A DNA stretch of 64,000 nt, from the NCBI GenBank assembly GCA_937884605.1, contig CALGDM010000005.1:124001-188000 (forward strand), in the 5' to 3' direction. This document shows positions 45,980-59,542 of the stretch, piece by piece; positions within the stretch are counted from its first letter, which is position 1; every line of letters starts with the position of its first letter. The translations under genes were made by a program, and so were the position numbers. The stretch is from an uncultured Spiribacter sp. (GTDB lineage Bacteria > Pseudomonadota > Gammaproteobacteria > Nitrococcales > Nitrococcaceae). Below the pieces are notes generated by a model. The model ran no database searches. It saw nothing but the letters and a program-made list of their open reading frames with translations, and had not been told where the DNA came from.

Positions 45980-47610
45980 TCGCTCTGGGCGGTTACGTCG
46001 ACACGCATCCTCAGTGACTGCCCCGGCTGCAGGTAGGTATTGGCGGATAGATCGTTCCAGCGCTGCAGATCGCCGATGCTGACGTTGAACTGCCGGGCAA
46101 TCCGATACAGCGAGTCCCCCTCGCGGACCGAGTAGGTGACCGACTGCAGCCGGTCCGTGGATGCAATCCCGGGGCGTACGCTTCGGCCCGGTTGCGAGTC
46201 GTCGCTCCCTTGCTGCGTCCAGACCACCAACTGCTCGCCAACACCCAGGGTGTCGCCGGGGGCCATGCCGTTCCAGCGTGCCAGCGAACGGACACCAATC
46301 CCGAAACGCTGGGCGATGGACCAGAAGCTGTCTCCGGAGCGCACGGTGTAGAGCCGACGCTCACCGTCATCGCGCTGACGGTTGCGGGTCCGCTCCTGCC
46401 GGGCGTCGGCGGTCATTGCGTACTCGCCGCTGGGTCGGCTGGCGATGGGGACGAGTAGGTGATCGCCGGCACGGATTGTGTTGCTGTCGAGGTCATTGGC
46501 GGAGCGCAGCGAGTCGACCGTGATGTGGTACTGCTCGGCGATCCCGCCGAGGGTTTCACCGCGGGCGATCGGGTGGCGTTGCCAGCGCATCCAGGCGCTG
46601 TCGGCCTGTTCGGCGAGCCCGGCGCGAAAAGCCTGGGCGCGATCCCGGGGCAGCAGCAGCCGATGGGGCCCGGTGGGGGGCGTAGCCCAGCGGTTATAGC
46701 CGGGGTTCAGGCGATAGAGCGTCTCCATGTCAATGCCGGCCAGATCAGCGGCCAGGGCCAGATCAATCTGGCGATCGAGCTCGATCTGTTCTACCGCCGG
46801 TCGGTTGGCAATGGGCTCGAGCTCGATGCCGTGTCTTTCGGGATTGGCCACCAGCTCGCTGATGGCGAGCAGCCGGGGCACGTAGTTCATGGTTTCCTGG
46901 GGCAGGTCCAGAGACCAGTAATCCGTCGGCCGGCCGGCCTGGCGATTGCGCCTGATCGCTCGCTGAACGGTGCCCTCGCCCGCGTTGTAGGCGGCAATGG
47001 CCAGCAGCCAGTCGCCATCGAACATTTCGCCCAGATAGCTCAGGTAGTTCACGGCCGCATCGGTGGCCGCCAGCACGTCGCGCCGCCCGTCGTACCACCA
47101 GTTCTGTTCGAGTCCGTAATGCCGCCCCGTGGCCGGGACGAACTGCCATATCCCGGCGGCCCGGCCGTGCGAATAGGCAAACGGCCGGAAAGCACTTTCG
47201 ACGATCGGCAGCAGCGCCAGCTCCAGCGGGATGTCGCGGGCCTCGAGGGTTTCGACGATGGGGTAGAGATAAGGCTGCGCGCGCCGCGACACCCGCAGCC
47301 AGTAATCGCCGTACGACACGTAGTCATTAAACTGACGCTCCACCCGTGGATTGTCATGGCCGGGTATGGCGTAGCCGCGCCGGATCCGTTCCCAGAGGTT
47401 GTCAGGGGCGGCGGAATCGTCTGCTGCCTGGGAGCGGTCGCGGGTCTCGGTGGCCCGGCGGCTGGCCGTTGCCGGCGGTGTTGATGCCGATGCCCGTGTG
47501 TCGGAAGCCGAGGGGGCGCCGCCCCCTGTGGGGTTGCCTTGGGGCGGAACACTGGCGCAACCGGCCAGAACGAGGGCCGCGGCGAGCGGCAGCACCAGGG
47601 AGCGATTCAC
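45976..47610 (-). CDS. mltD: Membrane-bound lytic murein transglycosylase D
   Basis: 544 residues. Lipobox LAGC puts the lipidated cysteine at 18. After a Ser/Thr/Ala-rich linker comes the SLT domain with catalytic E138 (LLPIVESAFRP) and IAAYNAGEGTV. Three LysM domains follow, near residues 350-400, 424-470 and 490-540. MltD cleaves peptidoglycan glycan strands with 1,6-anhydro products at the outer membrane. It sits 11 bases downstream of gloB on the same strand, an order (gloB-mltD) shared with E. coli. Confidence 0.94.
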   Translation of the reverse strand: MNRSLVLPLAAALVLAGCASVPPQGNPTGGGAPSASDTRASASTPPATASRRATETRDRSQAADDSAAPDNLWERIRRGYAIPGHDNPRVERQFNDYVSYGDYWLRVSRRAQPYLYPIVETLEARDIPLELALLPIVESAFRPFAYSHGRAAGIWQFVPATGRHYGLEQNWWYDGRRDVLAATDAAVNYLSYLGEMFDGDWLLAIAAYNAGEGTVQRAIRRNRQAGRPTDYWSLDLPQETMNYVPRLLAISELVANPERHGIELEPIANRPAVEQIELDRQIDLALAADLAGIDMETLYRLNPGYNRWATPPTGPHRLLLPRDRAQAFRAGLAEQADSAWMRWQRHPIARGETLGGIAEQYHITVDSLRSANDLDSNTIRAGDHLLVPIASRPSGEYAMTADARQERTRNRQRDDGERRLYTVRSGDSFWSIAQRFGIGVRSLARWNGMAPGDTLGVGEQLVVWTQQGSDDSQPGRSVRPGIASTDRLQSVTYSVREGDSLYRIARQFNVSIGDLQRWNDLSANTYLQPGQSLRMRVDVTAQSD

Positions 47611-54703: not shown

Positions 54704-55294
54704 TCAATCGGACTCGGCGGATGCCGCGCCCGCCAGAAGGTCCCGGCGCAGTCCGCGCGACAGAGGATCGTTGGCATCCAGCCAGATCCCGAAATAGGCG
54801 CTGGCAAAATCGCCGCCTGCCACCTGGCCCACCGGCTTGCCATTGAATGCCAGACGGGTGCCCTCATTGGGGATGTATTCCATGCGGTAACGATCCCCGT
54901 CGGTGACTGCCTGGAACAGCGCGTGGAAGCGGTCGATCTTTGGCTGAAGACGCTCTTGCCGGGCGGGGGTTAGCTGCTCGTCGAGCTTGGTGTTGGCCGC
55001 CCGGATGATGTCCTCGGCGCTGATGTCGTGGAAGTACTCGATTTCCAGACGCCGCGGCGTGTCCGTGGCCAGCGCCTGATCGGCATCCGCGCTCGGAGGC
55101 AGATACAGACCGGCGGCGTAGACGGTGAACACAATGCGATATTTGGCGACGCCCGTCCCGGTCAGGTTCAGATCCTCGCCGGCCTGCTCGATGCGCTCGT
55201 CGAAGCGCGCGCCGTTCTGCTCCACTGTTGCGTCTGCCATGGCCGGGGCCACCAGCATCACGGCGATCAATGCAGCTGTCAGGGATTTAACCAT
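54704..55294 (-). CDS. Chalcone isomerase-like secreted protein
   Basis: 196 residues: signal peptide (MVKSLTAALIAVMLVAPAMA) and a chalcone isomerase-like domain, with GTGVAKYRIVFTVYAAGLYLP as the first conserved stretch and FASAYFGIWLDANDPLS at the end. Bacterial members are periplasmic and not known to make flavonoids. It overlaps the DUF3833 gene by eight bases, so they form one unit; both families recur together in gammaproteobacterial stress clusters. The start at 55294 is chosen for the signal peptide. Confidence 0.82.
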   Translation of the reverse strand: MVKSLTAALIAVMLVAPAMADATVEQNGARFDERIEQAGEDLNLTGTGVAKYRIVFTVYAAGLYLPPSADADQALATDTPRRLEIEYFHDISAEDIIRAANTKLDEQLTPARQERLQPKIDRFHALFQAVTDGDRYRMEYIPNEGTRLAFNGKPVGQVAGGDFASAYFGIWLDANDPLSRGLRRDLLAGAASAESD

Positions 55295-55850
55295 TGTCTG
55301 CCTCCCCGGCGTCGTCGCGACGAAAGAACAACGTAACGGTGCCGACCCGAAAGCCAAACTTGGTGACCTCGGCGGTGTTCACGAGGGTGTTGTCGTCGTG
55401 CAGGTACATCCAGTCATCGAACTGCACGTTCCAGGTCCGATCACCCACTTCAAGGGCAAGGGTGTACTGCCAGTTGAAGGCATTGCCATAGCGCTTGCCT
55501 TCGGCCACGCCGACTACATCGCCGGCGGTGCCCTCATAGGTGTGCTCGTCGATGCGCTCGATCTCCCAGACCCGCCGGTCGGTCTCGCCATCCGCATAGG
55601 TGAAACGTTCATCCAGAGTGATCCGGTCGCCCTCGATGGTCCCGGTGATGTCCACGGTAAAGCGGCGCTTCACCTCGCCACTCCGCGACTGGAACATCCC
55701 CCAGGCGGTGACCTCGCCATCAAAGTATTCCTCGAGGCGCAACTCGGGTGTAGTGCCCGCATAGTCCTCGGGCGCTACGCCCGCACAGCCGGCGAGCACA
55801 AGGGTGGCCGCTGTGACAAGGCTCAGGGCCAGCAGGCGAAGACGCTTCAT
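55287..55850 (-). CDS. DUF3833 family lipoprotein
   Basis: 187 residues. Lipobox LVLAGC places the lipidated cysteine at 22; the rest is a beta-rich domain with LEEYFDGEVTAWGMFQSRSGEVKRRF and WMYLHDDNTLVNTAEVTKFGFRVGTVTLFF, the two conserved DUF3833 stretches. Lipocalin-like in appearance. It is the first gene of the pair with the chalcone isomerase-like protein. Its function is unknown; related clusters often include cyclopropane fatty acid synthase, which is not present here. Confidence 0.85.
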   Translation of the reverse strand: MKRLRLLALSLVTAATLVLAGCAGVAPEDYAGTTPELRLEEYFDGEVTAWGMFQSRSGEVKRRFTVDITGTIEGDRITLDERFTYADGETDRRVWEIERIDEHTYEGTAGDVVGVAEGKRYGNAFNWQYTLALEVGDRTWNVQFDDWMYLHDDNTLVNTAEVTKFGFRVGTVTLFFRRDDAGEADNG

Positions 55851-55938
55851 GAAAACCTCCGGGACAGGCGTTGCTTGATTGGGTTATGACTGATCAGACC
55901 TTATTATGCACGCAGAATTCTCAATCGTGAGATGGACC

Positions 55939-56643
55939 ATGTCAGACGATCAAAGCCTCCGGGAACTGGCCGCCAGCGCGGACGTTGTCGTGTTTCATTC
56001 CACCGTGACCGACCTGGGCGGGCTGGATGAGCTGCTCGAGGACTCGGGGCGCGATTGGCGCGCGGTGGAAATGGGGATGGGCTCGGCGGAAAACCGTGAT
56101 CAATTCGCACGCCTGAAAGCCCTGACCGGCTCGACGACGCTGCCCCAGGTTTTTATCGGTGGCCACTTTGTCGGTGGTCTGCGCGCCGCCACCGCCCGTC
56201 TGCAGGCGGAGGGCCGGCACCGCATGGCGGCGGACTGGATGGGCTATCTGGGCCTGATCCCGTTTGCCGCCACGGCCGCGGGTCCGTGGCTGGGCATGGC
56301 CTGGGCCAGTGACTGGCTGCTCGCCTATGGCGCGGTGATCCTGTCGTTTATCGGCGCGATCCACTGGGGGCTTGCCATGGGCCGGCGCAATCCGTCGCCG
56401 GCCGCCTTTTATGCCTCGGTGGTTCCCGCGCTGATTGCCTGGGTGGTCGTGATGCTGCCACTCATCATTGCGTTGCCGTTGATGGCGGCGGCCTTCATCG
56501 CCTGGCGTTATGGCGAGTACCGTTTCGTCGAAACGACGCTGCCGCGCTGGTTCCGGCGTCTGCGCACAGTGCTGAGCGTCGGCGCGGCCGTCGCGCTGGT
56601 GGCCGGATGGCTCGCGCTGCTGCCGTTCACAGGTACGGCGTAA
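55939..56643 (+). CDS. Cysteine-less glutaredoxin-fold / DUF3429 membrane fusion
   Basis: 234 residues. The first 90 resemble a monothiol glutaredoxin: a strand VVVFHSTVTD where the CxxC or CGFS site should be, and TLPQVFIGGHFVGG near 67-80 with the cis-proline P69 and glutathione-binding GG. No cysteine occurs anywhere in the protein, so it cannot do dithiol or Fe-S chemistry. The second part has about four membrane helices and matches DUF3429 (YLGLIPFAATAAGPW; YGAVILSFIGAIHWGLAMG). The start at 55939 precedes the domain directly. Its end overlaps cls by 17 bases. Confidence 0.75.
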   Translation: MSDDQSLRELAASADVVVFHSTVTDLGGLDELLEDSGRDWRAVEMGMGSAENRDQFARLKALTGSTTLPQVFIGGHFVGGLRAATARLQAEGRHRMAADWMGYLGLIPFAATAAGPWLGMAWASDWLLAYGAVILSFIGAIHWGLAMGRRNPSPAAFYASVVPALIAWVVVMLPLIIALPLMAAAFIAWRYGEYRFVETTLPRWFRRLRTVLSVGAAVALVAGWLALLPFTGTA

Positions 56644-58036
56644 ACAGCCACGCCATGGCGTCGCGGATGCGCGGCAGTATCGGGCGCTCGTCCAGCTCTT
56701 TGAGCGTCACGCGATGCGCCTCGCGCCGCGCCGCTTCGACATGGCTGGCCATGCGCTCACCAAAGTGCGTGTCATAGACCTCGAGCATAATCTCAAAATT
56801 GAGTCGCAGGCTGCGGGCATCGAGGTTGGCGGATCCAACCTGAGTGTAATGTCGATCCACCACGATCAGCTTGGTGTGATCGAATGGGCCAAACTGGTAG
56901 TAGACACCGACGTTCCACTTGACCAGTTCCCAGAGCATATTCCGGCTGGCCCAGTGCATGAAGGGCAGGTTGTTGTGGCCGGGCAGGATGATGTCGACCC
57001 GGGTCCCGCGCACGGCAGCGGCCTGCAGCGCCGCCACCAGCTCCCGGGGCGGCAGGAAGTAGGGCACCATAATGGCGATATGCTCGCGGGCTGCCGCCAC
57101 CGCCCCTACCAGAACCATGGTCAGCCGATGCAGGTCTTCGTTGGGCCCATCGACCAGCGTGCGACCAAGGGCCGTGCCAACCGGGGCTGATGCGGTCGAC
57201 GGCAGGGGGTTCGGGCGCTCGCCCGTGATGAACTCCCAATCGTCGAGAAACACGTCTTCGAGCTGCGCGGTGACCGGACCCTGCACGCGGAAGTGGATAT
57301 CGCGAATGCCCGCGCGGTGATCCGGCCGCTCGCTCAGGTGGCGATCACCGATATTCATGCCGCCGATAAACACCGTATCGCCGTCCGCGATGAGCAGCTT
57401 GCGGTGGTTGCGCAGGTTGATGACCGGGCTCGGCGGGAGCAACCGCGGGGGCAGGAAGCGCTCGACACGCACCCCATCGCGGCGCAGCCGATGGCGAATG
57501 GCCGGGCGGTTGTAGAATTCGCCGGCGCCGTCCAGGAGAACCCGCACGTCGACGCCGCGGGCGGTAGCGGCGGCCAGTGCATCGGCAAAACGCTGGCCGG
57601 TCTGATTGCTCTCGAAGATATAAGTCGACAGATACACCCGATCCGTAGCCTGCTCAATGGCCTCGAGCATTGCGGGATAGGCCGCTTCACCGCCGACAAA
57701 GCTCTCGATGAGGTTATTGTGGGTCATAGGCAGCCCGGTCACGGCGCGCGAGATCTGGGCCTGGGTGCGAAACGCGGTGGGGATGGACTCGGGCACGGTG
57801 GCGTTGGCGGCGTCCAGCCCCGCGACTTGCTCGCCACGAAGGCGTCGGGCGCGCATGCGGATGCGGTTGATCCCCAGCAGGTAGTAGAAGATCGGGCCCA
57901 CCACCGGAAACAGCAGGCAAAAGGCAATCCAGCCAAACGCCGCGGCCGGCTCGCGCTTGAACAGCAGCGCATGGACGGCGCTGGCGGTCGACACGAGACC
58001 AACGGCGACCACGAGAATCCATTGTACCGGCTGCAT
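56627..58036 (-). CDS. cls: Cardiolipin synthase
   Basis: 469 residues: two N-terminal membrane helices, then two phospholipase D-type HKD motifs, HRKLLIADGDTVFIGG and HTKLIVVDRHYTQVGSANLDARS. It condenses two phosphatidylglycerols, or PG with phosphatidylethanolamine depending on type, to cardiolipin. Length is that of ClsA proteins. With psd at 5419 it is the second phospholipid gene of the window. Its 3' end overlaps the DUF3429 fusion gene. Confidence 0.93.
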   Translation of the reverse strand: MQPVQWILVVAVGLVSTASAVHALLFKREPAAAFGWIAFCLLFPVVGPIFYYLLGINRIRMRARRLRGEQVAGLDAANATVPESIPTAFRTQAQISRAVTGLPMTHNNLIESFVGGEAAYPAMLEAIEQATDRVYLSTYIFESNQTGQRFADALAAATARGVDVRVLLDGAGEFYNRPAIRHRLRRDGVRVERFLPPRLLPPSPVINLRNHRKLLIADGDTVFIGGMNIGDRHLSERPDHRAGIRDIHFRVQGPVTAQLEDVFLDDWEFITGERPNPLPSTASAPVGTALGRTLVDGPNEDLHRLTMVLVGAVAAAREHIAIMVPYFLPPRELVAALQAAAVRGTRVDIILPGHNNLPFMHWASRNMLWELVKWNVGVYYQFGPFDHTKLIVVDRHYTQVGSANLDARSLRLNFEIMLEVYDTHFGERMASHVEAARREAHRVTLKELDERPILPRIRDAMAWLFTPYL

Positions 58037-58099: not shown

Positions 58100-59542
58100 A
58101 TGTTAACCCTTCGACGTGTCATGCAAATGTTCCTGCTGCTGGCGGGGGCGGGTCCTGTGGCCGCCGAGGCGCCAGGCAGTCTGCCCGTGCCGGCCGCGCT
58201 GGAGCCGGCCGTTGCCTTCTGGGAGCGGATCTACACCGAGGTGGGGGTGGATGAGGGGGTGATCCACGACACTGACGGACAGATGCGGATTATCGCCCGC
58301 ATCGACGTGCCGCGGCCGCCGCAGTGGGCGGCCCGTCGTAACGCCATCGCGGACGCACTCGCCCATCACCGCGCGGCACTCGAGGCAGAAGGCTCACCGG
58401 CGCTGGCCGAGCGCCTGCGCTTTCAAGGCGGGCTGCGTCAGCGGTTTCGTGAGGGCCTCGAGCGCTCGGGGCGCTGGCGGCCCCATATTCGCGCCGCGCT
58501 GGCCGAACGCGGTGTGCCCGCGGCGCTGGCGGCACTCCCTCACGTCGAGTCGTCCTTTAATCCCCGGGCTCGTTCGCATGCGGGCGCAGCCGGGTTATGG
58601 CAGTTCACCGCCGGTACGGGGCGCCGGTTTCTGCGCATCGATCCGCTGATCGACGAGCGGCTCGATCCCTGGCGGAGCACCACGGCGGCCGCCGCGCTGC
58701 TGGCTCACAACTACGCCGAGATCGGTCATTGGCCACTGGCCATCACCGCCTACAACCATGGTCTTAATGGCATGCGTCGCGCGGTGCGCGAGGTCGGTTC
58801 CACGCAGTACATGGAGATTCGCGAGACCTACGAGGGCGCGCGTTTCGGGTTTTCATCGAAAAACTTCTATCCGGCTTTGATCGCCGCCGTCCGGGTGGAT
58901 CGCGAGGCCCGCGAGCACTTCCCGGGCCTTGAGCGCGATGCAGCGGTGGAGGTCATGCGCGTGGAACTGCCGCACTATACGCCGGTTGATACGCTGCTGG
59001 CGGGCCTGGCCGTTGACCGCGCCACGCTGCAGCGACTCAATCCGGCGCTCGGGCCGTCGGTCTGGGACGGGCGCAAGTTCATTCCGCGCGGCTATGGCCT
59101 GGTGCTGCCAGGGGCCGATCCACTCGACTGGGCAAGCGCGCTGGCGCGGCTGCCGGGTGATCGGCTGTATCAAAGCCAGCGCCCGAGCCAGGCACACCTT
59201 GTGCAAGCTGGACAGACGCTGTCGGGCATCGCCGCGCGCTACGGCGTTGACGTTGCGACGCTGATGGCCGCCAACGGAATTGGCGATCCGCGTCATCTGC
59301 GGGCCGGTCAGCGCCTGGATCTGCCGCTGGCGGGGGGCAACCCCCAGCCCGTGGGCCGACGGCACTATGAAGTCCGGCCGGGCGATACCCTGGGCGCCAT
59401 TGCGATGCGCCACGACGTTGGCACCGATCAACTGATGCGGCTGAATGAACTCGACCATCCCGACCGGATCCAAGCCGGCCAGCAGCTGATTGTCAGCCGC
59501 ACCGCATCAGTCGCCGTGGTCGACATGGCCGACGAGCCCTGA
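58100..59542 (+). CDS. LysM-containing lytic transglycosylase, MltD-like
   Basis: 480 residues: signal peptide (cut near 22, GPVAA) without lipobox, SLT domain with catalytic E150 (ALPHVESSFNP) and ITAYNHGLNGMRRA, and two C-terminal LysM domains (about 365-410 and 422-468). It resembles MltD but is periplasmic rather than lipidated, and its N-terminal 130 residues are unlike the lipoprotein copy at 45976. It probably acts on peptidoglycan in a non-redundant way. It is divergent from cls. Confidence 0.88.
   Translation: MLTLRRVMQMFLLLAGAGPVAAEAPGSLPVPAALEPAVAFWERIYTEVGVDEGVIHDTDGQMRIIARIDVPRPPQWAARRNAIADALAHHRAALEAEGSPALAERLRFQGGLRQRFREGLERSGRWRPHIRAALAERGVPAALAALPHVESSFNPRARSHAGAAGLWQFTAGTGRRFLRIDPLIDERLDPWRSTTAAAALLAHNYAEIGHWPLAITAYNHGLNGMRRAVREVGSTQYMEIRETYEGARFGFSSKNFYPALIAAVRVDREAREHFPGLERDAAVEVMRVELPHYTPVDTLLAGLAVDRATLQRLNPALGPSVWDGRKFIPRGYGLVLPGADPLDWASALARLPGDRLYQSQRPSQAHLVQAGQTLSGIAARYGVDVATLMAANGIGDPRHLRAGQRLDLPLAGGNPQPVGRRHYEVRPGDTLGAIAMRHDVGTDQLMRLNELDHPDRIQAGQQLIVSRTASVAVVDMADEP

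What the first reader, a model, noticed from the sequence alone, without database searches (positions are those of the whole stretch)
55939..56643. Glutaredoxin fold lacking all cysteines fused to a DUF3429 membrane domain
The N-terminal part keeps the cis-proline and GG motifs of a monothiol glutaredoxin (TLPQVFIGGHFVGG), but the redox-site cysteine is gone and the whole 234-residue protein has no cysteine. The glutathione-binding groove may have been kept as a sensor or scaffold that controls the four-helix DUF3429 domain. I know of no described function for this combination.
Basis: partly seen in the sequence, partly recalled or inferred. Interest (0 to 1): 0.6.

Follow-up and report, generated by a model that had tools for sequence, protein, structure and literature searches.

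The report
Cysteine-less glutaredoxin fused to membrane protein
A salt-loving bacterium makes an inner-membrane protein of unknown function (DUF3429) with a glutaredoxin-shaped front part whose catalytic cysteine was replaced long ago in the whole lineage, and its gene keeps company with genes for light and membrane-oxidation damage, which gives a first lead to what this widespread membrane family does.

Summary
Confirmed: 55939-56643 (+) encodes 234 aa with no cysteine: a Grx-fold domain (about residues 1-93) followed by DUF3429 (97-224). It is not local decay. In all 53 distinct fused proteins compared (Spiribacter, Arhodomonas, Thioalkalivibrio, Natronospira, Arenicellales and others) the catalytic Cys is Thr or Ser, inside a conserved S-x-x-[TS]-[DE] motif; no Cys-bearing fusion was found. 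dN/dS of the domain is 0.03-0.31. The model (pLDDT 91) matches glutaredoxins best. Two congeners lost the domain but keep DUF3429 in the same locus, so it is accessory. Context: across Gammaproteobacteria DUF3429 co-occurs with DUF1365/UfaO (odds ratio 10.8). Many fused genes lie beside FAD oxidase-DUF1365-CFA-MFS-chalcone isomerase-like/DUF3833 genes, FolE, LitR-type MerR or photolyase, and in seven resolved loci overlap an upstream glutathione peroxidase gene by 1-4 bases. In Spiribacter it diverges from DUF3833-chalcone-isomerase-like genes. Best reading: a catalytically dead Grx-fold docking or regulatory domain on a DUF3429 membrane protein acting in light/singlet-oxygen membrane defence. 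The function is inferred, not shown. New variant of known kinds.

The parts
55939..56643 (+). Gene: 234-aa pseudo-glutaredoxin-DUF3429 fusion protein
   Evidence: ORF; zero Cys; conserved in 23 of 54 genomes of the order as a full-length fusion
55939..56217 (+). Grx-fold domain, residues 1-93
   Evidence: AF2 pLDDT 91, Foldseek/VIA best hits Grx, profile E 4e-9 against PDB
55999..56013 (+). Former active site S21-T-V-T24-D25: Thr at the catalytic Cys position, Ser at the activator Lys position
   Evidence: Alignments with true Grx and relatives; S-x-x-[TS]-[DE] in all 53 fused proteins
56137..56145 (+). T-L-P69: cis-proline motif of the Grx fold, kept
   Evidence: L68 and P69 invariant
56173..56178 (+). 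G79-G80 motif, kept; the acidic residue that follows in Grx is missing here (L81-R82-A83)
   Evidence: G79 and G80 invariant; comparison with Grx
56227..56610 (+). DUF3429 membrane domain, residues 97-224
   Evidence: PF11911 97.4 bits; model of the domain alone pLDDT 94.5; hydropathy
55879..55907 (+). Promoter-like sequence TTGGGT-N17-TATTAT, similar in several congeners
   Evidence: Upstream alignment; not tested for function
55287..55850 (-). DUF3833 lipoprotein gene, divergent from the fusion gene
   Evidence: PF12915 230 bits; conserved neighbour
54704..55294 (-). Chalcone isomerase-like gene (Chalcone_3)
   Evidence: PF16036 118.6 bits; conserved neighbour
56627..58036 (-). Cardiolipin synthase-type PLD gene, convergent and overlapping the 3' end by 17 bases
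   Evidence: PLDc_2; conserved in Spiribacter and Arhodomonas

Best explanation
The protein is an inner-membrane DUF3429 protein carrying a pseudo-glutaredoxin: a Grx-fold domain that lost thiol chemistry before the known members diverged and was kept as a non-catalytic domain with a new conserved surface (S-x-x-[TS]-[DE], a G-M-G/A turn, an invariant Arg and Phe on helix 2). Most likely it docks a partner or ligand next to the membrane and so places or tunes the DUF3429 domain, which works in defence of the membrane against light/singlet-oxygen damage together with the furan-fatty-acid type genes and, in some lineages, an exported glutathione peroxidase encoded in the same operon. Shown here: fold, ancient Cys loss, purifying selection, gene linkage and co-occurrence. 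Inferred: membrane position, docking or regulation, and the stress role. Not known: the ligand or partner and what DUF3429 does chemically.
For: Fold. Cys position always Thr/Ser in 53 of 53 distinct fused proteins, and in the 10 fusions of a class sample in which 61 genomes hold DUF3429 over the cut-off. Selection: dN/dS of the domain 0.03-0.31, similar to or lower than in the membrane part for most pairs. Linkage: 20 of 31 fused loci carry DUF3833/chalcone-isomerase-like or FAD oxidase/DUF1365/CFA/MFS genes within about 6 kb, against 1 of about 48 stand-alone DUF3429 loci from the same scan. Overlapping stop-start with an upstream glutathione peroxidase gene in all 7 resolved loci (-4 or -1 bases), the peroxidase with a signal-peptide-like start. 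LitR-like MerR with B12-binding domain next door in L040; RudS and photolyase in L055. Co-occurrence of DUF3429 with DUF1365: 46/61 against 68/308 genomes, OR 10.8, p 3e-15, kept when stratified by an unrelated control family; 36/36 against 6/18 within the order. The window's own genome has photolyase-SDR-SnoaL-MFS-CFA-DUF1365-FAD oxidase together on another contig. DUF1365 = UfaO and a CFA-like UfaM make furan fatty acids under the singlet-oxygen regulator ChrR (PMC7380195); UfaM, FolE and PhrB are LitR-dependent and light-induced in Pseudomonas (PMC9758184). Deleting the fungal mitochondrial DUF3429 protein Bcmimp1 raises ROS (PMC4767927). Precedent: SH3BGRL, a Trx-fold protein without the enzymatic site that acts non-enzymatically (PMC12827327).
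Against: No expression or phenotype data for this gene. The linkage counts come from related genomes and are not independent; most stand-alone DUF3429 genes (alpha/beta) and several fused ones (L035, L038, L039, L041, L048, L053, L056) are not next to these genes. Glutathione peroxidase is not next to the gene in Spiribacter, and the strongest co-occurrence is with DUF3429 as such, not with the Grx-like domain. Topology (4 or 5 membrane passes, side of the Grx domain) is unresolved.
Confidence: 0.5

Rival explanations
1. The domain still binds glutathione (or a persulfide) non-covalently in the Grx groove and reports its level to DUF3429.
For: Cis-Pro (TLP) and GG backbone elements are invariant; some lineages keep an acidic residue after GG; the neighbouring gene in some loci is a glutathione peroxidase.
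Against: Activator Lys is Ser in every member, the acidic residue is absent in the Spiribacter proteins, Phe56 stands about at the helix-2 ligand position; residue roles from PMC5382279.
Confidence: 0.13
2. The conserved Thr/Ser-Asp site is a new catalytic site, for example activating a thiol or peroxide as Ser-type glutathione transferases do, so the domain is an enzyme and not a dead one.
For: S21, T/S24 and D/E25 are conserved together with R53, more than a pure scaffold would need; GST folds descend from this fold and use Ser or Tyr (own knowledge); operon with glutathione peroxidase.
Against: Missing glutathione ligands; no GST_N match in Pfam; loss of the domain in two congeners without loss of the gene.
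Confidence: 0.1
3. The domain is only a structural handle that helps insertion, stability or oligomerisation of the DUF3429 protein and has no ligand.
For: Its last helix runs on into the membrane part in the model; the domain was lost in G007 and G010 while DUF3429 stayed in the same locus; most DUF3429 proteins never have it.
Against: Conservation is concentrated at the former active site (S21, T24, D25) and helix 2, which a mere handle would not require.
Confidence: 0.22
4. Local decay of a normal glutaredoxin-DUF3429 fusion in one lineage.
For: Single-sequence Pfam score just under the cut-off.
Against: dN/dS 0.03-0.31; the same replacement in 53 proteins from several families; no Cys-bearing fusion found.
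Confidence: 0.02

Closest known systems
Class I glutaredoxins (PF00462; e.g. poplar GrxC1 2e7p, human GLRX2 2fls)
   Same: Fold, order of elements, cis-Pro motif and GG motif
   Different: No catalytic Cys, no activator Lys, acidic scaffold residue absent in this protein; new S-x-x-[TS]-[DE] motif; fused to a membrane domain
DUF3429 family (PF11911; stand-alone bacterial proteins, fungal Bcmimp1; human TMEM69 from own knowledge)
   Same: Membrane domain with the G-x-x-P-F and YGAVILSFxGxxHWG motifs
   Different: Nearly all relatives lack any N-terminal domain; of 398 genomes sampled across the phylum only the window's own has the fusion
SH3BGR/SH3BGRL proteins
   Same: Trx/Grx-fold proteins without the enzymatic site that work by binding (PMC12827327)
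   Different: Eukaryotic, soluble, no membrane domain; no Pfam SH3BGR match here; the likeness is in principle, not in descent
ChrR/LitR light and singlet-oxygen gene islands with furan-fatty-acid genes (UfaM, UfaO, UfaD; PhrB; FolE)
   Same: Neighbouring and co-occurring genes
   Different: Neither DUF3429 nor the fusion is named as a member in the passages read (PMC7380195, PMC9758184); regulation of this gene is untested

Membership tests
Glutaredoxin (PF00462) | Grx/thioredoxin fold | tested here: met
   AF2 model and Foldseek/VIA hits
Glutaredoxin (PF00462) | Catalytic N-terminal Cys of CxxC/CxxS | tested here: not met
   Thr24 here, Thr/Ser in all 53 fused proteins
Glutaredoxin (PF00462) | Activator Lys three residues before the Cys | tested here: not met
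   Invariant Ser21; role of the Lys from PMC5382279
Glutaredoxin (PF00462) | cis-Pro T-x-P and GG motifs | tested here: met
   L68-P69 and G79-G80 invariant
Glutaredoxin (PF00462) | Score over the Pfam cut-off | tested here: inconclusive
   20.4 bits against 22.9 for the protein; 23.1 in the genome search
Glutaredoxin (PF00462) | Glutathione-dependent oxidoreductase activity or Fe-S binding | not testable with these tools
   Needs purified protein
DUF3429 (PF11911) | Score over the Pfam cut-off and family motifs | tested here: met
   97.4 against 39.1 bits; invariant columns of A4
SH3BGR family | Match to the family profile | tested here: inconclusive
   Not among Pfam matches up to E 1; only functional analogy
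Glutathione transferase (GST_N) | Match to GST_N plus all-helical soluble C-domain | tested here: not met
   No GST_N match; the C-part is DUF3429, hydrophobic
ChrR/LitR light-response regulon | Expression controlled by the light or singlet-oxygen regulator | not testable with these tools
   Only linkage and co-occurrence

The most novel reading that the evidence does not exclude
The remodelled Grx site (S-x-x-[TS]-[DE] with Arg on helix 2 and the cis-Pro) is a new ligand-binding or catalytic centre that recognises an oxidised-lipid or redox signal at the membrane and works with the DUF3429 domain and an exported glutathione peroxidase as a membrane-repair unit of the light/singlet-oxygen response; DUF3429, including its mitochondrial members, would then be a membrane oxidative-damage family.
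Probability: 0.15. Interest if true: 0.75.

Novelty: new variant of a known kind. Interest (0 to 1): 0.48.

Why it matters
DUF3429 is a widespread membrane family, from proteobacteria to mitochondria, without a known function. The linkage found here (furan-fatty-acid genes, photolyase, LitR-type regulator, overlapping glutathione peroxidase gene) gives a specific and testable hypothesis: membrane defence against light and singlet oxygen. The fused domain is a clean bacterial case of a glutaredoxin turned non-thiol in a whole lineage, with a conserved replacement site, which can be used to ask what the fold does after redox chemistry is gone.

Tried and rejected
Local decay: rejected by dN/dS and by conservation of the Thr/Ser-Asp site. 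Start at 55906: rejected, it lies in the -10-like box. A Cys-bearing ancestral fusion: none in the class, order or phylum samples or in the named-genome scan; the scan kept only the best 80 of 556 matches, so a rare one could be missed. Single origin of the fusion: the membrane-domain tree needs at least 10 changes but strong branches force only 2, so one origin with losses is neither shown nor excluded. Fold relatives of DUF3429 in the PDB: only generic four-helix bundles, no hit at E under 0.001, and no sequence hit; uninformative. Viral copies: one stand-alone DUF3429 hit only. TMEM69 literature: nothing functional found. The light-response paper most likely to list the gene (PMC7515241) is not held. 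A separate alignment of Grx rows caught the peroxiredoxin part of Prx-Grx fusions by wrong coordinates and was not used.

Full report
WHAT IS THERE. The ORF at 55939-56643 (+) encodes 234 aa without cysteine. Residues 97-224 are DUF3429 (97.4 bits against a cut-off of 39.1), and residues 54-78 give a Pfam Glutaredoxin match just under its cut-off. A profile made from the N-domains of 12 relatives finds glutaredoxins throughout the PDB at E down to 4e-9. The AF2 model of the whole protein (pLDDT 91.2; 32 sequences) has strands and helices in Grx order followed by a helical membrane part; the best PDB matches are glutaredoxins (Foldseek 2e7p E 1.2e-5; VIA-align 5zvl Z 11.0, rmsd 2.6, 92 residues). 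The window lies in a Spiribacter-like genome (named relatives).

THE CYSTEINE LOSS IS OLD AND SELECTED. Within the order 23 of 54 genomes hold the full fusion. In a class sample of 369 genomes 61 have DUF3429 over the cut-off and 10 of these have the Grx-like domain. In a phylum sample of 398 only the window's own genome has it. Named bearers include Spiribacter, Arhodomonas, Natronospira, Thioalkalivibrio and an Arenicellales MAG. All 53 distinct fused proteins have Thr or Ser at the catalytic Cys position, within S-x-x-[TS]-[DE]. Invariant or nearly so in the domain are V17, S21, D25, L33, M47, G48, R53, F56, G64, L68, P69, G79 and G80. dN/dS between near relatives is 0.03-0.31 for the domain and 0.06-0.50 for the membrane part. 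Against true Grx from related genomes the changes are Lys to Ser21, Cys to Thr24, Pro to Asp25 with one residue deleted, and no acidic residue after GG in this protein. The Lys and the acidic residue form the activator and scaffold sites for glutathione in Grx (PMC5382279). The same genome keeps a normal CGFS glutaredoxin, so Grx function has not been handed to this protein.

THE DOMAIN IS ACCESSORY. Congeners G007 and G010 have DUF3429 without the domain in the same locus, beside DUF3833, and they nest inside the fused Spiribacter group on the DUF3429 tree (starred branch). The number of fusion events is unresolved (at least 10 changes by parsimony, 2 forced by strong branches).

SURROUNDINGS. 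In Spiribacter and Arhodomonas the order is symporter (Spiribacter) - chalcone isomerase-like - DUF3833 - (divergent) fusion - cardiolipin synthase type PLD - MltD. In Thioalkalivibrio and others the fusion diverges from FAD amine oxidase - DUF1365 - CFA-type methyltransferase - MFS - chalcone isomerase-like or DUF3833, and is often followed by FolE. In ten loci a glutathione peroxidase gene with a signal-peptide-like start (where its 5' end is held) lies upstream; in the seven where the junction was resolved the two genes overlap by 1 or 4 bases. L040 has a MerR-B12 (LitR/CarH type) gene downstream; L055 has RudS and photolyase nearby; Pseudomonas monteilii has FolE next to a stand-alone DUF3429, with a MerR gene, an SDR and the FAD oxidase a few kb further on. 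The window's genome carries photolyase - SDR - SnoaL - MFS - CFA - DUF1365 - FAD oxidase on another contig. Across the class DUF3429 and DUF1365 co-occur (46/61 against 68/308, OR 10.8, p 3e-15) and lie within 12 kb of each other in 8 genomes, four of them with stand-alone DUF3429. Isocitrate lyase, taken as a lifestyle control, is associated only weakly (OR 2.7) and stratifying by it leaves ORs of 6.4 and 19.8. In the order all 36 genomes with DUF3429 have DUF1365, against 6 of 18 without it. These p values ignore shared ancestry.

WHAT IT LIKELY DOES. DUF1365 (UfaO) and a CFA-like methylase (UfaM) make furan fatty acids under the singlet-oxygen regulator ChrR (PMC7380195). In Pseudomonas UfaM, FolE and photolyase genes are LitR-dependent and light-induced (PMC9758184), and RudS genes often lie in light-responsive operons (PMC11417400). 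A fungal DUF3429 protein sits in mitochondria and its deletion raises ROS (PMC4767927). The most economical reading is that DUF3429 serves membrane defence against light-driven oxidation, and that the Grx-like domain is a non-thiol docking or regulatory attachment. SH3BGRL shows that a Trx-fold protein without its enzymatic site can work purely by binding (PMC12827327). The fold, the conservation, the linkage and the co-occurrence are shown; membrane side, partner and chemistry are inferred or open. By the positive-inside rule the arginine-rich linker (82-95) and the loops at 149-150 and 190-209 favour a cytoplasmic Grx domain with five passes, but four passes cannot be excluded.

VERDICT. A real and conserved feature, not decay; a new variant that joins two known families. 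The glutathione-sensor idea is weakened by the missing ligand residues, and the surroundings point to a more specific role.

Noticed in passing
L180 (+ strand, stand-alone ORF of about 131 aa) and L181 (- strand, about 121 aa): Stand-alone Grx-like proteins of a second group (family f111, same class) that also lack the catalytic Cys (VVVVGMGMNP in its place); they score higher against the pseudo-Grx profile (44 and 41 bits) than true Grx do (31-37 bits).
   Followed up: partly
G007 (L016) and G010 (L015), same locus as the window gene: The Grx-like domain is missing while DUF3429 and the DUF3833 neighbour stay.
   Followed up: yes
L234 (own genome, contig C19, 18000-34000): Intact light/singlet-oxygen type island: photolyase, SDR, SnoaL-like, MFS, CFA, DUF1365, FAD amine oxidase.
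   Followed up: partly
55879-55907 and upstream regions of L002-L010: Conserved TTGGG-N17/18-TAT(C/T)AT promoter-like element with a conserved TTGACCC just before the -10-like box.
   Followed up: no
46222-47259 (-): Second MltD-like gene in the window besides 58100-59542.
   Followed up: no
L217, L218, L221, L222: True Grx matches in order mates are the C-terminal part of peroxiredoxin-like fusions (Prx-Grx type).
   Followed up: no
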